From: a cyanobacterium endosymbiont of Rhopalodia gibberula
GTDB lineage: Bacteria; Cyanobacteriota; Cyanobacteriia; Cyanobacteriales; Microcystaceae
Reading direction: 5' to 3'
Assembly (NCBI RefSeq): GCF_003574135.1
Contig: NZ_AP018341.1
Coordinates: 2,145,740 to 2,209,739 of the forward strand
DNA length: 64,000 nucleotides
Part shown: positions 1,805 through 42,425 of the stretch, piece after piece
Position numbering within the stretch: the stretch's first letter is position 1
Layout: each line of letters starts with the position of its first letter
The notes under the pieces: generated by a model
What the model saw: the letters and a program-made list of their open reading frames with translations, nothing else
Databases searched by the model: none
Told to the model about the DNA's origin: nothing
Made by a program: the position numbers and the translations under genes

Positions 1805-3148
1805 ATGGGCAGTAAGCCAACTATTGCGATTTCTCACCTAGGCTGCGAAAAGAACCGTATTGACTCTGAACATATGCTAGGCTTGCTGGCGCAGGCGGGC
1901 TATCAAATAGATAGTAGTGAAGAATTAGCAGACTACGTAATTGTTAATACTTGTAGTTTCATACAGGAGGCTCGCCAAGAGTCAGTTCGTACATTGGTAG
2001 AATTAGCCGAAGCCAAGAAAAAAATTATTATCTCTGGCTGTATGGCACAACACTTTCAAGTAGAACTTCTTGATGAGATTCCTGAGGCCGTCGCTGTGAT
2101 AGGAACGGGAGACTATCAAAAAATTGTTGATGTTATCCGACAGGTGGAAACAGGAAAAAAAGTTAAAGAAGTCTCAGTTAATCCTACTTTTATCGCGGAC
2201 GAAACAGTTCCTCGCTACCGTACAACCACTGAAGGGGTGGCTTATTTGCGGATAGCAGAAGGGTGTGATTACCGTTGCGCATTTTGTATCATTCCTCACT
2301 TGAGAGGAAATCAGCGATCACGTTCTATTGAATCGATTGTCGCCGAAGCACAACAATTAGCTGAGCAAAGAGTACAAGAATTAATATTGATTTCCCAAAT
2401 CACCACAAATTATGGATTGGATTTGTATGGAGAACCCAGACTAGACCAATTATTGAGGGCTTTGGGAACAGTAGACATACCCTGGATTCGGATTTATTAT
2501 GCTTATCCTACAGGACTCACCAATAAGGTGATTAACGCAATTAGAGACACCCAAAACGTTTTACCCTATTTCGATTTTCCTTTGCAACATTCCCACCCGG
2601 CTATCTTAAAAGCGATGAATCGTCCTTGGCAGGAACAGGTCAATAATGGCATCATTGAACAGCTCAGAAGGTCTATTCCTGAAGCCGTATTGAGAACAAC
2701 TTTTATTGTGGGTTTTCCCGGAGAAACAGAGGAATATTTTAACCATTTAGTTAATTTTGTCGAATGTAATGAATTTGATCACGTTGGAGTATTTACTTTT
2801 TCTCCAGAAGAAAGAACTCCTGCTTATCAGATGCCCTATCAGGTTCCGTCAGAAATAGCCCAACAAAGACGAGAAATCTTGATGCAGGTGCAACAGCCAA
2901 TTTCTCTCAAAAAAAATCAAGATTATGTTGGAGAAATCGTTGACGTTTTAATTGAACAAGAAAGGCCTCAAACTAGGGAGAAAATAGGGCGTTTTTGGCG
3001 ATTTGCGCCGGAAGTAGACGGTCTTGTTTATATTCAAGGAGAAGCTCCCTTAAACGAAATTGTGTCTGTTAAAATCACCTATGCTGATACCTACGACTTA
3101 TATGGAAAGATTGTGCAACAACACAATGTTCTAGAAATAGATTCTTGA
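1805..3148 (+). CDS. rimO: Ribosomal protein S12 methylthiotransferase RimO
   Basis: RimO is a radical-SAM enzyme that adds a methylthio group to an aspartate of ribosomal protein S12. The 447-residue length is normal. The N-terminal MTTase domain carries its three cluster cysteines at about C14 (HLGCEKN), C50 (VNTCSF) and C79 (SGCMAQ). The radical-SAM motif is [17 protein letters not shown], with cysteines at about 154, 158 and 161. A TRAM-like beta domain closes the protein ([11 protein letters not shown]...[12 protein letters not shown]). The [17 protein letters not shown] start matches the usual cyanobacterial N-terminus. The DEAD-box helicase follows 97 bases downstream on the same strand. 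The call is secure from the motif order and the S12-type catalytic domain. Confidence 0.95.
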
Positions 3149-3245
3149 TCGAAAACACGCCATAAGTTTTCCCTCAGCAGGAAAAGCTTACTAACCGCTT
3201 TGTATTAAATTAATCTCGCAGTTAAGTTACTAACTAACATTTCTT

Positions 3246-4688
3246 ATGACCATTTCTTTTAATAGCTTAGGACTCTCTGATGACCGTGTTAATAAACTAG
3301 AAACCCTAGGTTTTACGAGTCCAACAGAGATTCAATCTAAAGCAATTCCTTTAATTTTGGAAGGACATGACATTCTAGGACAATCTCAGACAGGAACAGG
3401 GAAGACGGCAGCTTACTCCTTGCCCATTATGGAGCAGATTGATACAAACGATTCCAACATACAGGCACTTGTTCTAACTCCAACCCGTGAACTTGCTCAA
3501 CAGGTTGCCCTTGCCCTTAAGGACTTTTCCACTGAACGCCGACTGTACATTTTGACTGTTTATGGAGGTCAATCGATTGACAGGCAAATTCGGAGTTTAC
3601 AACGAGGTGTCCAAATTGTTGTTGGAACTCCAGGAAGGGTTATCGACCTATTAGAGCGCAAAAAGTTGGTTCTAGATAATTTAAAATGGGCCGTTCTCGA
3701 TGAAGCTGATGAAATGCTCAGTATGGGTTTTATCGACGATGTGAAGAAAATTCTAAAGCAAACCCCTGACCAACGCAACACTGCTTGTTTCTCAGCAACT
3801 ATGCCCCGTGAAATCCGAGAATTAGTTAACCAGTTCCTCAAATCACCTGTTACAGTGACTATAGACCAGCCTCAAGCTGCACCTGATAAAATTGAACAAC
3901 ATCTTTATGGTGTTCCTCGCGGTTGGTCAAAACTCAAGGCGTTACAACCAATTTTAGAAATTGAAACCCCTGAAACAGCCATTGTTTTTGTTCGGACTAA
4001 ACAGACGGCTTCTGAACTTACCAGCAAGTTACAAGAAGCCGGGCAAAGTGTTGATGAATACCATGGCAATCTAAGTCAGTCCCAACGAGAACGGTTAGTC
4101 CATCGATTTCGAGATGGTAAAATTAGGATTGTTGTGGCCACAGATATTGCGGCAAGAGGGTTAGACGTTGAGAACTTAAGCCACGTCATTAACTACGATT
4201 TGCCGGATAATGCAGAAACTTATATTCATCGGATCGGACGAACAGGCCGGGCAGGAAAAAAAGGGACAGCAATATCTTTAGTGGAACCAATTGACCGCCG
4301 CATGGTACGTCAGATTGAACGACGAATTCGACAGAGAATAGAATTGTGTAGTATTCCTAATCGCTCTCAAGTGGAAGCTAAGCGACTGGAAAAACTACAA
4401 AAGCAAATTCAAGATTCCTTGGCAGGAGAACGGATGGCTTCGTTTTTACCTATTGTGCGGGAACTTAGCGACGAATATGATCCCCAAGCAATAGCTGCTG
4501 CGGCTTTACAGATGGTTTATGATCAAGATTGCCCCAATTGGATGAAGACTGATTGGGAAGTCCCTGAAGCAGGAATATCTAAACCAATTATTCAGGGTAA
4601 AAATCGCAAAGATAATTCCAAACCCCGTCGTAATAACTCAGGAAAAAAATTAGATCGTAAGACAGTCAGTCATCATAGAGGGCGTTAG
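3246..4688 (+). CDS. DEAD-box ATP-dependent RNA helicase
   Basis: This enzyme unwinds RNA using ATP; in cyanobacteria such helicases serve mRNA turnover, ribosome assembly and cold or redox responses (CrhR/DeaD type). All core motifs are present in order in the 480 residues: Q-motif (FNSLGLSDDRV...SPTEIQ), motif I SQTGTGKT (47-54), PTRELA, TPGR, DEAD (152-155), SAT (183-185), and then ATDIAARGLDV and HRIGRTGRAG in the second RecA domain. The last 30 or so residues are basic (GKNRKDNSKPRRNNSGKK), as in RNA-binding tails of the family. It lies 97 bases after rimO and may share its transcript. Whether it is the direct CrhR orthologue needs a tree. Confidence 0.92.
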   Translation: MTISFNSLGLSDDRVNKLETLGFTSPTEIQSKAIPLILEGHDILGQSQTGTGKTAAYSLPIMEQIDTNDSNIQALVLTPTRELAQQVALALKDFSTERRLYILTVYGGQSIDRQIRSLQRGVQIVVGTPGRVIDLLERKKLVLDNLKWAVLDEADEMLSMGFIDDVKKILKQTPDQRNTACFSATMPREIRELVNQFLKSPVTVTIDQPQAAPDKIEQHLYGVPRGWSKLKALQPILEIETPETAIVFVRTKQTASELTSKLQEAGQSVDEYHGNLSQSQRERLVHRFRDGKIRIVVATDIAARGLDVENLSHVINYDLPDNAETYIHRIGRTGRAGKKGTAISLVEPIDRRMVRQIERRIRQRIELCSIPNRSQVEAKRLEKLQKQIQDSLAGERMASFLPIVRELSDEYDPQAIAAAALQMVYDQDCPNWMKTDWEVPEAGISKPIIQGKNRKDNSKPRRNNSGKKLDRKTVSHHRGR

Positions 4689-9768: not shown

Positions 9769-11329
9769 CAAATCAGAAATAAACAGGATTAAGAGTAGTT
9801 TTAAGAAATTGCAATGGAATAGATGAAAGATATATAAATGATAGTTTCAAAATTGAGAGCAACCAAAATAAGTATGTAACCCCGAAGAAATGTCAAAAGA
9901 GCAAATTACTTTGTATCTCTATACTTTACATTGATTTTTTTATGAAAACTTCTTTGGGCAAGACTTTGTTTAACTGCTTAAACTAAATCATATTCATCCT
10001 CAAATATTCTTCTAGTCGTTTCACGAACTTTTATTCGATACCATTCTTATTTGATTATATTTATTGCTTCTTGTTATTTAAATTTGACTTTAACTAAATC
10101 ACTTATATACACTAAGTCATTATTGAGAATAATTATCGTATCTATTCCTTTACAACTACAGTATATTTGAGTCCTGTCTGCCTTTTTATCTAAAAAATGT
10201 TAAACTTTACCTTTTAAAGTACTTTTTGATAAAGCATAATCAAAACTTATATTCAATTTGAATGTTTATCTTAAATTTAGTCGGTTTCTTTTTTTTTAAC
10301 CATATGAAATCACTTTATATGGTTCTTTATTTTCTACTTCTCGGAGAAGCTCATAATTATTCTCTTTCTTGAAGAATATGTTTAGAAATTATTTCTAAAT
10401 TGTATTTTTTTATAGTTTTACCTAATCCATATTCTCTTCAACTCTCTGTTCTCTTGTATTCAAACATAATATTTCTGTTCTTGGTTTAGTTCTGGAGAAA
10501 ATTTCTGGGCTCAAGTCAACTTTGATAATCTTTGCTTTTCTAATTCAATCTCATCTACTTATTCAAAGATATACTATTATTTTTCAATAAATATTTCAAG
10601 CTTATTGAATTGACTATATGAGATAATCTCCATACAATCAAGACAATAAGCGTAGATTAATCTAACTAAAAATTATCGGTAGGTAAGTTATTTATTGAGT
10701 TCTAATTCTTGTTTAAAGATAGAAATGTTTTAGATAAGGAATCTTTTCAAAAGAACACTATTATTACCACATGGGTAGGGTGCTCACTAACGAGCTTTTA
10801 AATAACTACAAATTAGTATCTCTAGAATCAGACCTTAATGTTTATGAATATTCATGGTGTTTAGAAAATTCAACCAATTGTTGCAAAAACTCCTAGTCTA
10901 TTAATTATTATTAATAATAAGCCTTAATACGAGAGAAATTTTTAAGCTAGGCAAGATATTTAAATAAACCTTAAAGTTTTTAATGCCTCTTGAACTATTT
11001 TAAAGATTATGGAGAGAAAAGTGTTTTGTAATGTAGATAATCTCTATCCAATATGTGGACAGTATAGTCTCTTGGTAGTCTTGAGTGTTTGCGACTACCA
11101 TATTAAATAATTGTCAACTTCGTTTTATGTAGTTTAGATATCGAGAATAATAACAGTATCTTTAAATCTAATCAGACTCACGTTATTTTAACTTGGCATT
11201 ATTTGAAAAATGTTTCATTAAATATTTCTTGTTTGTTTATAGTGAAAAATTTTTTAATGATCGTGTTATGGAAAATATTGTATTAGGTGTTACGGTTGAA
11301 GTATTGACAAAATCGAAGGGTCTTGCTGT
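9769..11329. other. Gene-free stretch containing an IS-like remnant
   Basis: No intact gene is seen. The first half (about 9880-10640) is copy A of the degenerate repeat family described separately. From 10640 to 11329 the sequence is AT-rich without recognisable coding sequence. Confidence 0.5.
9880..10640 (-). repeat. Degenerate IS-like repeat, family 1 copy A
   Basis: This segment resembles those at 12000-12509, 21660-21970, 36586-37040 and 41390-42310 in the order of shared blocks. On the minus strand it gives broken protein-like pieces such as WYRIKVRETTRRIFEDEYDL and CKGIDTIIILNNDLVYISDL, which recur in copy D. Several stops interrupt every frame. A long-dead insertion sequence is the likeliest origin; the IS family is not identified. 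Confidence 0.5.
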
Positions 11330-11887
11330 CTAAGGTGAGTTTTCCCACTCTGGGGTTAATGTCCGAAAATCGAAATTTTCTACTCCTGGATGACAAATTA
11401 TACAACTCCTATGGGTGACAGTTTCCTTAAACTTAACTCGAGGATGAAGGAGCTTAAAATAACGTGATTGCTCCACATAAAAAGGAATTGGTTCGTCCTT
11501 AGCGGATAGAGTACGAGAAAACGTTTGCAGATAGTCCCACATCAATAGTTGCCCCAGACGAATCAAATTGGGAACTGAAGTTCCATAATGGTTGTTAGGA
11601 TTTTCTAATAATTTCTTCCAGGTTTCACTAGGTAAAACCTCTGGAGGTAAAGCAATATGACAAGCTGAACAGGTTTTAAGATAAAACTCCTGTCCTGCTT
11701 GGTATCGTGCATAAACACCATCATCAGGAGATGCAGCAATCGCCATAGGTGCATTTCTCGTAAATGTATGCAAAATGCAAGTAATTCCCCAACCAATACT
11801 AATAGACCAAAAGCAGATTGCCAATATAATGATGACGGAAAGCAGATTGAATCGAGAACAGATAGATGACCAGGAAGTCTTGAACAT
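11330..11887 (-). CDS. Membrane-anchored dihaem cytochrome c (DHC-like)
   Basis: 185 residues with one N-terminal hydrophobic segment (about 15-40, IIILAICFWSISIGWGITCI), then two haem c attachment motifs: CSACH (about residue 73) and CIICH (about residue 161). The spacing, and the sequence around the first motif (CSACHIALPPEVLPSETWKK), resemble the dihaem cytochrome c (DHC) family. It should be exported and sit on the periplasmic or lumenal face, carrying electrons. The partner is unknown. It stands alone between two eroded regions, so its intact frame suggests selection. The reading frame ends ENSP with no frameshift. Confidence 0.8.
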   Translation of the reverse strand: MFKTSWSSICSRFNLLSVIIILAICFWSISIGWGITCILHTFTRNAPMAIAASPDDGVYARYQAGQEFYLKTCSACHIALPPEVLPSETWKKLLENPNNHYGTSVPNLIRLGQLLMWDYLQTFSRTLSAKDEPIPFYVEQSRYFKLLHPRVKFKETVTHRSCIICHPGVENFDFRTLTPEWENSP

Positions 11888-11999
11888 TAGTTACTCTAAG
11901 CTACAACAGATTAACCATAACTGATCTTAGCAATCTCTTTACAATTGTTTTTCTCTGAAGACCAATCTCAATAATTAGACAGTGAGATAATGTACAGGT

Positions 12000-12509
12000 T
12001 GCTTTAAATAAACGTTAAGAAAACTATTTTAATAGCTAGAGTCCAATATATATTATTTTAACTAATATTTTTTTGTTAGCTTTTGACAAAGATTTTGTTT
12101 AATTGCTCTAGCTCGATAATATTCATATTCAAACATCTCTTAAGTTATCTTCTTTTCTTAAAAAATTCTCAAATAGATTCTATAGTATTCCTCAGTTCAC
12201 GTTTTTTTATTTCACTTCTCAGGTAATTCAAAAATTATTCTATATCCTTGAATAATTTATCTTAAAATTATTTTTCCAATTGTATTTTTTAAAAGTTTCG
12301 CCTGGACTGTAATTTATTTTGCTTTTTATACTCTTATATTTAAACACAATACTTCTCTGTTTGTTCTAGTCGCGGAGATGGTTTTTAGGTAGCGGGTCAA
12401 TTTTAGTAGTTGTTACCATTTTAATTCTATTGGCTTAATTTTTAAAAAAGTTGATATCTAGCATGCTCTTTTTTAACTATTTTTATATTTTACACTTCTT
12501 TAAATTCAC
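12000..12509 (-). repeat. Degenerate IS-like repeat, family 1 copy B
   Basis: It shares the block order of copies A, C, D and E. Minus-strand translation gives broken fragments (MVTTTKIDPLPKNHLRD, IVFKYKSIKSKINYSP) parallel to those in copies A and E. No frame is open for long. The portion 12219-12509 exists again, identical and inverted, at 13842-14132. Confidence 0.5.
12219..12509 (+). repeat. Left arm of a perfect 291-bp inverted repeat flanking ribF
   Basis: I compared the arms base by base: 12219-12509 equals the reverse complement of 13842-14132 over all 291 positions, without indels or mismatches. Homology stops abruptly at both ends. Confidence 0.95.
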
Positions 12510-12664
12510 TTTTTAAAAGACGAGTTATAAAGAGAATCTAATTCTTAATGACTTGGGTAAGAGCTAATTAGTGAAACTGGGATAGACTATTTAGAAAGTG
12601 ATCTAGACTGCGCTCCATATCGGTGCGTATTCAGAGTTCTCCTCTAGCTTAAATTTCAGCAACA

Positions 12665-13609
12665 ATGTATACTCAATCAAGTGTGTGGGTAACTTCATCA
12701 ACTGCTAATATCCTAACACCAACTGTGATCGCTCTTGGCAATTTTGATGGTCTCCACTTAGGGCACAGAAACGTTTTACAACCCATTTGTCTTTCCTCAA
12801 TTGAAACAATCTCTTCTTACTCCACTGTTGTTACCTTTACCCCACATCCTCAAGAATTTTTCACTGGACAAACTCGACAACTTCTTACTCCTCTATCCGA
12901 AAAAATAAAACGGCTAGAATTTCTAGAAATACAACAATTAGTTAGATTACCCTTTGACCGAGAATTAGCTACCTTAAGTCCCCAGGAATTTGTGGCACAG
13001 ATATTGGTCAAACACCTCCGAGTTCGACAGATAAGTGTTGGGGAAGACTTTCGCTTTGGACATAAACGAATGGGAACAGCTAAAGATTTAAGTAAAATTG
13101 CCGCTTCTTTTGGAATACCAGTTTATATTACTCCCTTAAAAACTTATTCAGGTTTAAAAAAGCGCATTAGCAGTTCTTTAATTCGTCGATGTCTTGCGGA
13201 AGGAGACGTAACACAAGCAAAACAAATGTTGGGCTATTCCTATTCTTTGATAGGAACAGTGGTTAAAGGACAGCAATTAGGAAGAACTATTGGCTTTCCA
13301 ACAGCTAACCTCAAACTTCCCTTAGATAAGTTGTTGCCTCGACAGGGAGTATATGCAGTTCGGGTAAAAATAAACCAAAAAGAAACACTAAAAGGATTGA
13401 TGAATTTTGGTTGTCGCCCCACTGTTGCAGGAGAAACTCCTATGGTAGAAGTTCATATATTAGATTGGTCAGGGGACTTATACCAACAATCTTTAACAGT
13501 CGAATTGGAGAAATTTTTACGTCCTGAACAACAATTTCTTTCCCTTGATAAACTGAAAGACCAAATAGTCCAAGACTGTTGTTTGGCCAGGGAAATTCTC
13601 TATCAATAA
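12665..13609 (+). CDS. ribF: Bifunctional riboflavin kinase / FAD synthetase RibF
   Basis: RibF phosphorylates riboflavin to FMN and then adenylates FMN to FAD. The 314 residues are the usual length. The N-terminal nucleotidyltransferase domain has GNFDGLHLGHRNVL and the KKRISSSLIRRCLAEGDV segment. The C-terminal kinase domain has the flavin/ATP motif TIGFPTANL and the strand GLMNFGCRPTV. The start at 12665 puts the GNFDG motif at the expected distance from the N-terminus. The gene stands alone inside a perfect inverted repeat (arms at 12219-12509 and 13842-14132), so the 1.33-kb segment carrying it could in principle invert by recombination between the arms. Confidence 0.95.
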   Translation: MYTQSSVWVTSSTANILTPTVIALGNFDGLHLGHRNVLQPICLSSIETISSYSTVVTFTPHPQEFFTGQTRQLLTPLSEKIKRLEFLEIQQLVRLPFDRELATLSPQEFVAQILVKHLRVRQISVGEDFRFGHKRMGTAKDLSKIAASFGIPVYITPLKTYSGLKKRISSSLIRRCLAEGDVTQAKQMLGYSYSLIGTVVKGQQLGRTIGFPTANLKLPLDKLLPRQGVYAVRVKINQKETLKGLMNFGCRPTVAGETPMVEVHILDWSGDLYQQSLTVELEKFLRPEQQFLSLDKLKDQIVQDCCLAREILYQ

Positions 13610-15460
13610 ATGTTAAAATTACCAAAAATTTTAGGAAATCTACAAAGAAATCCTTAAGAAAATCTCTATGAGAGACACAATATACTGATGAATAACCGCA
13701 GCTTTACTTTTGTAGGGAAATATAAATCCATTAGTTTAATCATTCTCAAGTTCTTAAGTAAGGAGCACGCTTTTCTCAAAAATGTCTCTATAGTAGCTAA
13801 AAGTCTCTTGACTAAAATCTTTAGCCCGTTTGATTAAGTAGGTGAATTTAAAGAAGTGTAAAATATAAAAATAGTTAAAAAAGAGCATGCTAGATATCAA
13901 CTTTTTTAAAAATTAAGCCAATAGAATTAAAATGGTAACAACTACTAAAATTGACCCGCTACCTAAAAACCATCTCCGCGACTAGAACAAACAGAGAAGT
14001 ATTGTGTTTAAATATAAGAGTATAAAAAGCAAAATAAATTACAGTCCAGGCGAAACTTTTAAAAAATACAATTGGAAAAATAATTTTAAGATAAATTATT
14101 CAAGGATATAGAATAATTTTTGAATTACCTGAAAATTTTAAGTTTGAAAAAATATTATTTGCTATTAGATTTATTTTTTAATATAAAGTTTATTGTTGGC
14201 TAACAAAATAGACAAAAAAGTACTTTTTATTTATTGTTGGCAAAAAAGCTGTCTATCTCAAGATAGATCGTATTCAAATTAAACGTAGCCGATATTGAAA
14301 CACATTTATGTAAGAGTTAATTCTTTCTCATAAAAGACATATACTAAAAAATTTTAAACAAGAATTATTGAAGAAGTCTTATACTTGTGATAATAATAGT
14401 ATATATGGCTAAAAATAATGGAGTTAGTAGATAAGAAATAAAGATAATACTCAAATATTTAGGGCAAGTATTACAGATAAAGAATATAAGATATTGAATT
14501 TAAAGCTGTAGTTAAAAAATAAAAAAATCTTTTATTCAACAAAAGTAAATATTTTAAATTAAATCTTTTTTTAAGACAATTAAAATACTAGAAATTATAG
14601 AAATAAAACTTTTAAGTAAAGTTAAAAAAGTTTGTATATATCTTAAAAATTGCAGAAAAACATTTTAAGTAAATTAATATTATAAATCGTAGTATTGGCA
14701 GATAGATTTCTGTAATTAAATAAGTTAATACTCAATTTGATGATTAAATAAAACCTTTTAGATGAAAAGTAAAATTTCCTAAAATACTAATATAAAAAAC
14801 AAGATATAATAAAATAATTAAGGTGAAGTAAAAAAGTTTAGAAATAAAAAATTAAATTGAGTATACAAGATATCATTTTTTTAAAAAAAGCCGACTTAAA
14901 TAAAAATTTAGAATGTTTTTTTAAAAATTTTAATTTAAATCGCTAAAAACTGTAAAATAATTAGATATTTTTTCATAAAATTTATCATTTTTGTTAGTTT
15001 TTAACCTCAAAGTTTATTGATTTAACATTTTACTAGTCAATTATACATTGTAATTAAATACACCTTATAAATATTCCATTAATCATAAAAAACTATTTTT
15101 AAAATAAATAATTGTAATTTTAGTACCAGAAATTTTCTAGAAGTAAATAACAATAATAAGTAATTCTTTAGGAAATATTTATTAAGTAGATAAAGTTCAA
15201 TAGTAAAAAAACTAAACTACTAAAAGATATATTATTAAGATAATTAAAAGTTATACAACCATGCAAAAAAATTACTGTATTTAGTTTATTGGCAGAAAAA
15301 ATCTATATATTTTATATATAACTTAATAATAAATAATGATCAAAATCTATAAATTATCAATATTTATTTTTAAGTTTATTGTCTAAAATTTTTTTTAAAT
15401 ATTCAATAGATACTATTAAATAGTAAAAGTATAAATATATTTTTGTAAATAAATTTATAG
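13610..15460. other. 1.85-kb gene-free AT-rich stretch
   Basis: It contains the right arm of the inverted repeat (13842-14132). Beyond 14133 the sequence is extremely AT-rich, with short homopolymer runs and no frame of protein-like composition on either strand. I see no RNA gene. Confidence 0.5.
13842..14132 (-). repeat. Right arm of the perfect 291-bp inverted repeat flanking ribF
   Basis: This is identical, in inverted orientation, to 12219-12509. It carries only the distal part of the IS-like remnant; no further similarity to copy B is seen past 14132. It starts 232 bases after the ribF stop. Confidence 0.95.
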
Positions 15461-16600
15461 TTAAGAATGTAAAGCTAAAAATATAAAACTTTCTAATCCT
15501 ATAAATGCAAATAAAATTGATTTAATGGGAATTTTATTTGTATTAATACTCAACAATAAGAAAAAATAAATATCTATAAAAACCCGTAAATAATCTAAAT
15601 AATAGCTCAATATTGTCGTGCTACTCATTACAAACATAGCACCATATAAGAGGGTGCTATATTGAATTAATTGATTATCTTTACGATGATATGAACTAAT
15701 TATCAATATAGTTACAAAAACAATAAAAATCAGAACAAATGAATAAGCTTCAAATAAATTTTCTCCTTTAAATCCTCCCATTAATAGAGAAATAAATTTG
15801 TTGTAAATACCCATAAAAGGATAACCAAAGTTAGCTTTTACTCTAACCGCACCTGGTAATTCCAAAGAATTAATATAAATCGTCCATAAAAATGGAGGTA
15901 TCCAAGCCCATAATAATTGTTTGCTTTGTTCTTTTTTATTTTGACTAAAACTAGTCAACAAAATAGCTAACCAAATTAATAGTAAAGTCTCTCTAGCTAA
16001 ACAAGCTAAAGAAATAGCAAAAGCTGTCAAAACTGGTTTGTTATATCGATAGCAATAGAATGAAAATATTAATAATAAACTACTAAGTAAATCAGCAGTT
16101 CCTAAAGAAAGAACTATCCAAACGCCAGGAATACATAACGTTAACAACGGTTGCCATTTTTGCTCTTGATTAAATTGAAAATATAAGCTAATGATCCAAA
16201 TAATACCTATAACCGATAGGTAATTGATGGCAACCATTATATGAGGAATCAAAATCCGATTACCGAAACTAAAGAGATAGCTAATTAGAGGATATAAAAT
16301 TCGACGATAGCGATAAACTGGATGATCAAGAGTGGTGATAGTTTCAGGATTTTGCAAAAAAGGATCGAGAGCTAAACTGAGAAATTGCTGTCCATCATAG
16401 CCAATTTCTCCTTGATAAATTTTAGTAGTTTCAGGATTAAGAAAAGGAGAAAGTTCTAAGATTGAACCAATACGAAAAAATCCTGTTATATTCCCTTGAA
16501 ATCTGATAAAATATAAATAAAGAATAACTACGGTTATAACAATAACAGTAATCAGTAAATTAATAACTTTAGGGGAAAATTTAGTTAGAAAATATTTCAT
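15461..16600 (-). CDS. Polytopic membrane protein, glycosyltransferase-like (cell-surface glycopolymer type)
   Basis: 379 residues with about nine to ten predicted membrane helices, the first at about 12-33. After helix 1 an extracytoplasmic loop carries IGYDGQQFLSLALDPFLQ and then YRYRRILYPLISY. This YDGQ...YRRILYP pattern is typical of a family of membrane proteins linked to cell-surface glycopolymer formation, with the topology of GT-C glycosyltransferases. The substrate and reaction cannot be inferred. The gene is isolated between AT-rich stretches of more than 1 kb and its own codons are also AT-rich, but the frame is fully open, so it is probably functional. Confidence 0.7.
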   Translation of the reverse strand: MKYFLTKFSPKVINLLITVIVITVVILYLYFIRFQGNITGFFRIGSILELSPFLNPETTKIYQGEIGYDGQQFLSLALDPFLQNPETITTLDHPVYRYRRILYPLISYLFSFGNRILIPHIMVAINYLSVIGIIWIISLYFQFNQEQKWQPLLTLCIPGVWIVLSLGTADLLSSLLLIFSFYCYRYNKPVLTAFAISLACLARETLLLIWLAILLTSFSQNKKEQSKQLLWAWIPPFLWTIYINSLELPGAVRVKANFGYPFMGIYNKFISLLMGGFKGENLFEAYSFVLIFIVFVTILIISSYHRKDNQLIQYSTLLYGAMFVMSSTTILSYYLDYLRVFIDIYFFLLLSINTNKIPIKSILFAFIGLESFIFLALHS

Positions 16601-21659: not shown

Positions 21660-21970
21660 ACTTTTCTTTTTTTTTAAAAATCTTAGACGATTGTTAGCCA
21701 TGAAAGATATATCTATAAATTGTATTGTCTGATAATTTTACCAGTCTATAATTTTCTTGAACTTCCACTTTTTTTTATTTAAACATAAATTTTATGTTTT
21801 TGTTTTTATCCCCGGAGTAATAATTTGTTCTTTAGTTAAAGTTAATAGTTCTTGATCTTATGATTGTGTTAGGTGAACTAATTATTTTAGCTTAATTTTT
21901 AAGCAGGCTGGTATCTAATGCTTGTTCTTTTTAAAACACTTTTCTCTCTTAGACTTATTAAAGTCTACTT
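21660..21970 (-). repeat. Degenerate IS-like repeat, family 1 copy C
   Basis: This partial copy has the block order of the distal part of copies A, B and E: an ATTTAAACATAA-like block, CCCCGGAG, GCTTAATTTTTAA and then a GGTATCTAATGCTTGTTC-like end. It is strongly diverged and non-coding. Confidence 0.4.
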
Positions 21971-41189: not shown

Positions 41190-42425
41190 GGGAAATTGCC
41201 TATAGGTGCGACCATTAATTCAACCTAACAGTATATAATCAATGGGCGGTGATATACGAGTAAGAGTAATCCCTTACCATAAAATCCTAACCCAAGATCT
41301 CATGATTATTGCTTAAAGTTTTGATGAGAGATAACTCAAGGCAGTCTTGTCTTCGAATTGTTACCTACTTTACACTTATGCTAAGTAAGTAGCTTTAAAT
41401 AAACTTTAAAAAAGTGAATTATCTCGTGTTTTTATACTTAAGTAATTAGAGTTTGATTTATATCAATTTAATTGATATTATTTAGATTAACTCTCTTAAG
41501 CAAACAAGACTTTGTTATACAAACTTATAAACAATGTTTTTTTTGTAAATTTTTGTTAGCTTTATTAGCTTTTAGTTGGCTGTTTTTCTTTTATTAAACT
41601 TTACTTTTTGACTCTAATTCAGTAGATATAAATATAATTTTATATCGTTTTAATCAGGCTTTAATTCAGCTACTTATAGGCATTGAGTGATTATTTAAAA
41701 TAATTGTTGTATTTATTCCTTAATTATTACATTATTTATGAGCTTTGCTTGTGTGGTTTTCTAAATATTTCTACTTTTTTACTTCTTTTTGTTTATGAAA
41801 TAAATTGATTTTTATACTTACTTTTTTGCTCTCATCCCTAGCTATGTTTAAGAAAATTAAAAAATATCCCGAGATCTAGTTTAATTTTCCTCTACTTCTT
41901 AAAAAGAAGTAAATTATTAGCTATAATGAGCAATTATTTGATTCTTTTTTCAGATATATTCAATATATATTATCTCTTCTTTAATTCCAGGTTACTTTTC
42001 TTTTACTTTCTGGAGGATTTTACAATCTTTCTAATTTTTTAAAAATCTACCTATAAATTGTTTTTTTTAAACTTCTGATAGTTTCACTAAGTTTGCAATT
42101 TATTTAACTTTGTATCCTTTTGGATCTAAATATAAAATTCCTGCTCTTATTTTAATTCGGAAGAAACTTTTGGTTATAAGTTCACTTTAATAGTTCTAAC
42201 TCTGCTAAATTACAGTAGCTGAACTCTTGAGTAAACTAACATCTAGTACTCTTTCTTTTTTAACTATTTTTACCATTTTAGATTTTTTTAAGTTTAGCTA
42301 CTTACAGATTGATATAAATTTTAGGGGTCAGTCGATAGAATAGCTATGGTCTCTAAACCACCAATAATAAATAAATTGACTAACATTCAAAGAAATTATT
42401 TCGGTTAATGCTCAACAGGATATAA
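41190..42425. other. 1.2-kb gene-free stretch with IS-like remnant
   Basis: Most of it is repeat family 1 copy E (about 41390-42310). The last 100 bases form the upstream region of cobS. Confidence 0.5.
41390..42310 (-). repeat. Degenerate IS-like repeat, family 1 copy E (longest)
   Basis: This is the longest family copy in the window. Its minus strand begins with a clear protein-like N-terminus (MVKIVKKERVLDVSLLKSSA) and continues with IRAGILYLDPKGYKVK, stop, IANLVKLSEV, stop, KKQFIG, resembling a helix-turn-helix N-terminal part of a transposase. Later blocks match copies A and D. All frames are broken. Confidence 0.5.

What the first reader, a model, noticed from the sequence alone, without database searches (positions are those of the whole stretch)
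12219..14132. Perfect 291-bp inverted repeat enclosing ribF
The arms are identical over 291 bases although they consist of dead IS-like sequence whose other copies are heavily diverged. Either the inverted copy arose very recently, or the arms are kept identical by gene conversion. Recombination between the arms could flip the 1.33-kb ribF segment, moving the essential FAD synthetase gene relative to its flanks. I know of no such arrangement for ribF.
Basis: partly seen in the sequence, partly recalled or inferred. Interest (0 to 1): 0.65.

Follow-up and report, generated by a model that had tools for sequence, protein, structure and literature searches.

The report
Inverted dead-IS pair that flipped ribF
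In bacteria living inside diatoms, the FAD-making gene ribF sits between two facing scraps of dead mobile DNA that appear to be copied onto each other and have turned the gene around at least once during evolution; both processes are known separately, but this is a very clean natural case.

Summary
The repeat is real: 12219-12509 and 13842-14132 are identical over 291/291 bases, inverted, 1,332 bp apart, around single-copy ribF. [quoted passage not shown] The arms are remnants of an IS630-like element. EtSB, from Epithemia turgida, has the pair at the same place. Its arms are 93.6% identical to each other but 76-78% to RgSB's, while the sequence just inside each arm is orthologous by position. 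Site patterns are 55:0:0 (by genome) in the arms and 0:56:0 (by position) in the flanks. A third copy 1.7 kb away is not homogenised. So the arms are old and kept alike within each genome, most likely by recombination. With the left flank fixed, ribF points one way in SU2, uoEpiScrs1 and EcSB and the other way in RgSB and EtSB, with breakpoints in the arms. It flipped at least once; whether it still does is untested. A new case of a known kind.

The parts
12219..12509 (-). Left arm: remnant of an IS630-like element; element end on the right, facing ribF; transposase start reads outward (minus strand)
   Evidence: 291/291 identical to the right arm; tblastn of an EcSB IS630-like ORF matches 12445-12188 with in-frame stops
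13842..14132 (+). Right arm: inverted copy of the left arm, transposase start reading outward (plus strand)
   Evidence: tblastn match 13906-14136 with in-frame stops
12665..13609 (+). ribF, bifunctional riboflavin kinase/FAD synthetase, single copy in the genome, inside the inverted segment
12510..12664 (+). Upstream region of ribF inside the segment, conserved between RgSB, EtSB and uoEpiScrs1; travels with the gene when it flips
   Evidence: RgL-EtL 83.9%, RgL-uoR 79.1% over 148-149 aligned bases
13610..13841 (.). 3' spacer of ribF inside the segment, orthologous in EtSB and EcSB
   Evidence: RgR-EtR 83.7%, RgR-EcL 80.1% over 166 aligned bases
11330..11887 (-). Left neighbour: dihaem cytochrome c (DHC) gene; on the same strand as ribF in SU2, uoEpiScrs1 and EcSB, now divergent from it
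15461..16600 (-). Right neighbour: AZOBR_p60025-family cell-surface glycopolymer gene; fixes the right flank
10336..10548 (-). Third IS630-like remnant, same orientation as the left arm; orthologous copies in EtSB and EcSB; internal negative control, not homogenised

Best explanation
The arms are two fragments of a dead IS630-like insertion sequence that came to lie in inverted orientation on either side of ribF, most simply in the ancestor of the RgSB, EtSB and EcSB spheroid bodies. Shown: the pair is at orthologous places in RgSB and EtSB; its arms are alike within each genome and different between genomes; ribF lies inverted relative to both flanks in RgSB and EtSB compared with EcSB and uoEpiScrs1, with the breakpoints inside the arms. 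Inferred: homologous pairing or replication template switching between the close arms does both jobs, gene conversion keeping them alike and an occasional crossover flipping the segment. Inferred: it is neutral, a by-product of two near-identical sequences facing each other 1.3 kb apart in a genome that keeps RecA, with ribF a passenger that carries its own upstream region. Inferred: EcSB lost one arm by deletion, which froze the ancestral orientation.
For: Arms within a genome: RgSB 291/291, EtSB 265/283. Between the two genomes: 216-221 of 283-285. Site patterns: arms 55 by genome, 0 by position, 0 crossed; inner flanks 0, 56, 0. ML tree of the arm cores pairs the arms by genome, support 99 for RgSB and 80 for EtSB. 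The third copy at 10336-10548 is 77.5% (EtSB) and 83.0% (EcSB) identical to its orthologues but 67.6% to the left arm 1.7 kb away. Between species the arms (76-78%) are nearly as diverged as two other non-coding stretches here (72.6% and 73.9%), so selection on sequence does not explain their likeness. Orientation and breakpoints: L031 (RgSB) 237-1907, left flank plus arm, and 1888-3538, ribF plus arm, each align to EcSB in one piece but on opposite strands; uoEpiScrs1 and SU2 have the EcSB orientation. EcSB, uoEpiScrs1 and SU2 lack the pair. Tree ((RgSB,EtSB),EcSB), 26 genes, 27,511 columns, other topologies rejected at AU p 0.0008 and 0.00001. RecA and RuvB_N matches over cut-off in 7 of 7 genus genomes.
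Against: No reads were available; conversion and crossover are inferred from four endosymbiont genomes and one outgroup. RgSB was assembled from amplified DNA, reads trimmed to about 245 bases, 550-bp inserts, so the perfect identity and the orientation of its segment rest on read pairs across a 291-bp repeat; EtSB supports the same picture independently. In the arm tree the EcSB arm joins the RgSB pair (support 78) instead of lying outside RgSB and EtSB. Of seven EtSB arm differences outside the fold-back, six fall on the left arm, none on the right and one is ambiguous; I do not explain this. How the second arm arose is not resolved. SU2 informs only on the left flank, since its right neighbour differs. 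Endosymbiont status of uoEpiScrs1 and free living of SU2 are inferred from names and genome size.
Confidence: 0.88

Rival explanations
1. Recent, independent duplication: each lineage copied one arm to the other side of ribF not long ago, so identity reflects youth and not conversion.
For: RgSB arms are identical and EtSB arms nearly so; remnants of the element are numerous.
Against: It needs the same fragment at the same two places with the same inner ends in two lineages. The left flank plus arm is shared with EcSB, and the arm upstream of ribF with uoEpiScrs1. EcSB aligns over about 23 bp of the inner end of the arm it lacks.
Confidence: 0.06
2. Assembly or amplification artefact in RgSB: an inverted chimera from amplified DNA, or repeat copies collapsed by the short-read assembler.
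For: RgSB DNA was amplified and sequenced as 300-base pairs with 550-bp inserts.
Against: EtSB, a separate assembly, has the same inverted pair at the same place with distinguishable arms.
Confidence: 0.03
3. Regulated switch: the arms are sites of a dedicated recombinase and the inversion turns a gene on or off.
For: Inverted repeats flank a single-copy gene, and the orientation differs between lineages.
Against: The arms are long, diverge between species nearly like other non-coding DNA, and the conserved upstream region of ribF lies inside the segment, so no promoter is exchanged for ribF. The cytochrome gene loses its co-directional neighbour, but a switch there is speculation. A nearby recombinase was not searched for systematically.
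Confidence: 0.04
4. The arms are kept alike by selection because both act as functional elements, for example terminators or RNAs.
For: Likeness within a genome.
Against: No Rfam match at E up to 1 in 11000-15500; the arms differ by K2P 0.26-0.29 between RgSB and EtSB, more than the inner flanks at 0.18-0.19.
Confidence: 0.03

Closest known systems
Gene conversion among non-functional IS copies in Wolbachia wBm (Cordaux 2009; original not seen, known here from a passage of PMC3196728, and a citation in PMC4224334)
   Same: Dead IS sequence in an obligate endosymbiont kept alike by recombination.
   Different: The passage speaks of a number of highly similar copies; here one close inverted pair is homogenised while the 33 other matches listed have drifted, and the process is compared across two species.
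Inversions between pairs of inverted repeats in bacterial chromosomes (PMC5372343, abstract and section list seen)
   Same: Inverted repeats at both ends of an inverted segment.
   Different: Its abstract treats inversions over 10 kb between strains of one species; here 1.3 kb, a single gene, between endosymbiont species.
IS inversions by recombination between terminal inverted repeats in Wolbachia (PMC3004938, abstract and section list seen)
   Same: Recombination between IS-derived inverted sequences in an endosymbiont.
   Different: There the IS itself is inverted; here a host gene lies between two IS fragments.
[quoted passage not shown]
   Same: Reports inversions and/or translocations between the two, and 22 and 18 IS elements, none likely transposable.
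   Different: The words repeat, recombination and FAD do not occur in its main text. RgSB and EtSB agree in ribF orientation, so the flip shows only against EcSB, uoEpiScrs1 and SU2.

Membership tests
IS630-family insertion sequence | Transposase of the family (N-terminal helix-turn-helix part) | tested here: inconclusive
   A 141-aa ORF of the best-kept copy (EcSB) matches NF033545 IS630 transposase at 57.8 bits over residues 33-134, E 1.1e-15, below the whole-protein cut-off of 100; HTH_32, HTH_23, HTH_29 and HTH_28 are above cut-off. The window arms match that ORF at about 48%, with stops.
IS630-family insertion sequence | DDE catalytic domain | tested here: not met
   The arms match only the start of the transposase. 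Of 16 DDE_3 matches in the genome none lies in the arms. The arms are fragments, not an IS630 element.
IS630-family insertion sequence | Terminal inverted repeats and TA target duplication | not tested
   Only one element end is recognisable in the arms.
Inverted-repeat-mediated inversion | Segment orientation differs between relatives and both breakpoints fall in the repeats | tested here: met
   EcSB has nearly lost the right-hand arm, so the right-hand breakpoint is read from uoEpiScrs1.
Concerted evolution by gene conversion | Copies more alike within a genome than orthologous positions between genomes, with flanks orthologous by position | tested here: met
   55:0:0 against 0:56:0; identities; negative control.
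Concerted evolution by gene conversion | Conversion events seen directly | not testable with these tools
   No reads or population data.
Phase-variable invertible element | Inversion exchanges the promoter or an end of the gene | tested here: not met
   ribF is whole inside the segment and its conserved upstream region lies inside too. Transcription was not examined.
Phase-variable invertible element | Dedicated recombinase | not tested
   No systematic search for a recombinase gene was made.

The most novel reading that the evidence does not exclude
The segment still flips: spheroid-body populations of R. gibberula and E. turgida hold both orientations of ribF, and replication-linked template switching between the arms, of which the new fold-back hairpin in the EtSB right arm would be a by-product, is the main recombination activity preserving repeats in these genomes.
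Probability: 0.25. Interest if true: 0.55.

Novelty: new member of a known kind. Interest (0 to 1): 0.4.

Why it matters
Mobile DNA in young endosymbiont genomes decays. This locus suggests, with a built-in control 1.7 kb away, that two dead fragments can stay alike because they face each other at short range, and that the same pairing has turned around the only FAD synthetase gene. It gives a small, countable system for asking how much recombination remains in a bacterium on the way to becoming an organelle. If only history is involved it is a tidy textbook case and nothing more.

Tried and rejected
Rfam search of 11000-15500 at E up to 1: nothing. Search for an intact parent element: related ends turned up in 5 of 55 non-endosymbiont genomes (12 candidates scored per genome). 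In G021 the contigs stop inside the element, so its rest is not visible, and the G020 locus showed no transposase among ORFs of 100 aa or more. The tree of the inner flank had weak support within the two groups (29 and 48) and was not used. A first tree of five genomes with 9 genes (my note wrongly says 11) was replaced by four genomes with 26 genes (for the alignment, for the tree); one search printed no tree and one search failed because of a thread setting. Of 33 window ORFs tried, 7 were dropped because an orthologue was not found in all four genomes within the stretches held.

Paper searches. Searching ribF with inverted repeat and inversion found 0 papers; the library is open-licence PubMed Central only. 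Two further spheroid-body papers were searched for rearrangement words without a relevant passage. Not done: metagenome collections (cap of zero) and any read-level test.

Full report
What is there. Window 12219-12509 and 13842-14132 are reverse complements at 291 of 291 bases, 1,332 bp apart. Between them lies ribF, 12665-13609 +, a full bifunctional riboflavin kinase/FAD synthetase, the only FAD_syn match in the genome. In 464 kb of this genome, window included and each stretch scanned against itself, the only other inverted pair of at least 60 bp and 75% identity is 65 bp long at 75%. So the pair is exceptional in the 15% of the genome examined; the rest was not scanned this way.

Where it comes from. 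That uoEpiScrs1 is a diatom endosymbiont and SU2 free-living is inferred from names and genome sizes.

What the arms are. The arms belong to a dispersed family of about 300 bp. One search lists 35 matches in RgSB, two being the arms; the others of 100 bp or more are 66-75% identical. This is a lower bound, since 40 of 170 candidates were scored. A consensus search of 59 genomes finds the family in all four endosymbionts and short related ends in 5 of the other 55 genomes; none was reported in SU2, G005 or G006, with 12 candidates scored per genome. The best-kept copy, in EcSB, opens a 141-aa frame that matches the IS630 transposase model over residues 33-134 at 57.8 bits, below the whole-protein cut-off of 100, and four helix-turn-helix Pfam models above their cut-offs. 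That frame matches both window arms at about 48% identity, with stops, reading outward from ribF. The arms are therefore remnants of the start of IS630-like transposase genes, with the element end facing ribF. The RgSB paper already states that none of the IS elements it found in RgSB (22) and EtSB (18) is likely to be transposable.

The arms are alike by genome. EtSB has the same inverted pair around ribF; EcSB, uoEpiScrs1 and SU2 do not have it. Over the aligned core, RgSB arms agree at 291/291, EtSB arms at 265/283, but RgSB and EtSB arms only at 216-221 of 283-285. Just inside the arms the picture turns round: left matches left (83.9%) and right matches right (83.7%) between species, while left and right of one genome agree at about 41%, the level of unrelated sequence. 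In informative columns the arms give 55 that group by genome, 0 by position and 0 crossed, and the inner flanks 0, 56 and 0. A tree of the arm cores pairs them by genome with support 99 (RgSB) and 80 (EtSB); in it the single EcSB arm joins RgSB with support 78, which does not follow the species tree. A third copy at 10336-10548, in the same orientation as the left arm and 1.7 kb from it, is orthologous in three genomes and shows the normal pattern: 77.5% and 83.0% to its orthologues and 67.6% to the RgSB left arm. The arms differ between species nearly as much as two other non-coding stretches nearby (72.6% and 73.9% identity), and more than the inner flanks (K2P 0.26-0.29 against 0.18-0.19), so selection on their sequence does not explain the likeness within genomes. 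Taking that arm distance as the span since the RgSB-EtSB split, no difference in 291 sites (upper bound about 1%, my estimate) puts the last homogenisation in RgSB in the last few percent of the span; EtSB with 7 differences in 258 sites outside the fold-back (0.028) is at about a tenth (clock assumed).

The segment has flipped. Relative to the dihaem cytochrome gene on the left and the glycopolymer gene on the right, ribF is + in RgSB and EtSB and - in EcSB and uoEpiScrs1; in SU2 it is - relative to the left flank, its right neighbour being different. In SU2 ribF, a gene that I recognise from its sequence as a MoxR-type ATPase (no family search was run) and the cytochrome gene run in one direction with gaps of 61 and 8 bases, so - is most simply the older state. 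RgSB aligns to EcSB in two unbroken pieces, left flank with arm and ribF with arm, on opposite strands; that breakpoint thus lies in the arm. The other breakpoint is seen through uoEpiScrs1, whose single arm remnant sits upstream of ribF, towards the right flank. EcSB aligns over only about 23 bp of the inner end of that second arm. With 26 genes and 27,511 columns RgSB and EtSB are sisters; the two other topologies are rejected (AU p 0.0008 and 0.00001), although the signal is mixed: 300 sites for this grouping, 262 and 213 for the others, and single genes differ. The simplest history is: one arm upstream of ribF in the common ancestor of the four, both arms before EcSB split off, one inversion on the RgSB-EtSB stem, loss of one arm in EcSB. 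More flips are possible and not seen.

How it works. Shown: orthologous position of the pair, likeness of the arms within genomes, inversion with breakpoints in the arms. Inferred: the agent. RecA and RuvB_N matches over the cut-off are present in 7 of 7 genus genomes, so classical recombination is likely available. Replication template switching between close inverted repeats is an alternative known to me from recall. The EtSB right arm carries a perfect hairpin with a 25-pair stem; its partner arm and the other species read differently there, so one side was probably copied from the other. Such fold-back changes are, from recall, typical of template switching. That the close inverted pair is homogenised and the direct copy at 1.7 kb is not fits a short-range inverted mechanism, but could also mean that the third copy had already drifted too far to pair.

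Function. I see no sign of a switch. The upstream region of ribF, conserved in uoEpiScrs1 at 79%, is inside the segment and moves with the gene. What did change is that the cytochrome gene no longer lies on the same strand as ribF. No Rfam element was found. Expression was not examined.

Limits. RgSB was sequenced from amplified DNA with short trimmed reads and 550-bp inserts, so its perfect identity and its orientation depend on read pairs across a 291-bp repeat. EtSB carries the argument independently. No reads were available to me. The asymmetry of the EtSB differences outside the fold-back (six on the left arm, none on the right, one ambiguous) is unexplained.

Against the known. Conversion among dead IS copies is described for Wolbachia wBm (passage of PMC3196728), inversion between inverted repeats is reported as a major mechanism in two bacterial species (PMC5372343 abstract), and IS-derived inverted sequences recombine in Wolbachia (PMC3004938 abstract). 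The locus is a new member of this kind. A search for ribF, inverted repeat and inversion together found no paper (open-licence PubMed Central only).

Noticed in passing
L032:1719-1780 (EtSB right arm): A perfect fold-back hairpin (25-pair stem, z -11.8) occupies the inner part of the right arm; the EtSB left arm, RgSB, EcSB and uoEpiScrs1 read differently there.
   Followed up: partly
L054:7947-8867 (SU2): A gene that looks like a MoxR-type ATPase (recognised by eye) lies between ribF and the dihaem cytochrome gene in SU2; in uoEpiScrs1 134 bases separate the aligned stretches of the two genes, and in RgSB no ORF of 60 aa or more lies between them.
   Followed up: partly
L165:2820-3257 and L182:15319-15619: Two direct duplications in RgSB (about 219 bp at 86%, head to tail; 132 bp at 81%, 37 bp apart), the only direct repeats of that kind in the twenty sampled stretches.
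   Followed up: no
G021 contigs C18, C83, C93, C104, C127, bases 2-127: Five contig ends of another cyanobacterium stop inside the same sequence, 75% like the repeat family; the four printed are identical over their first 127 bases, which suggests a recently active relative of the element.
   Followed up: partly
window 21694-21964 and 42005-42293: Two more IS630-like remnants in the window, not homogenised with the arms.
   Followed up: partly
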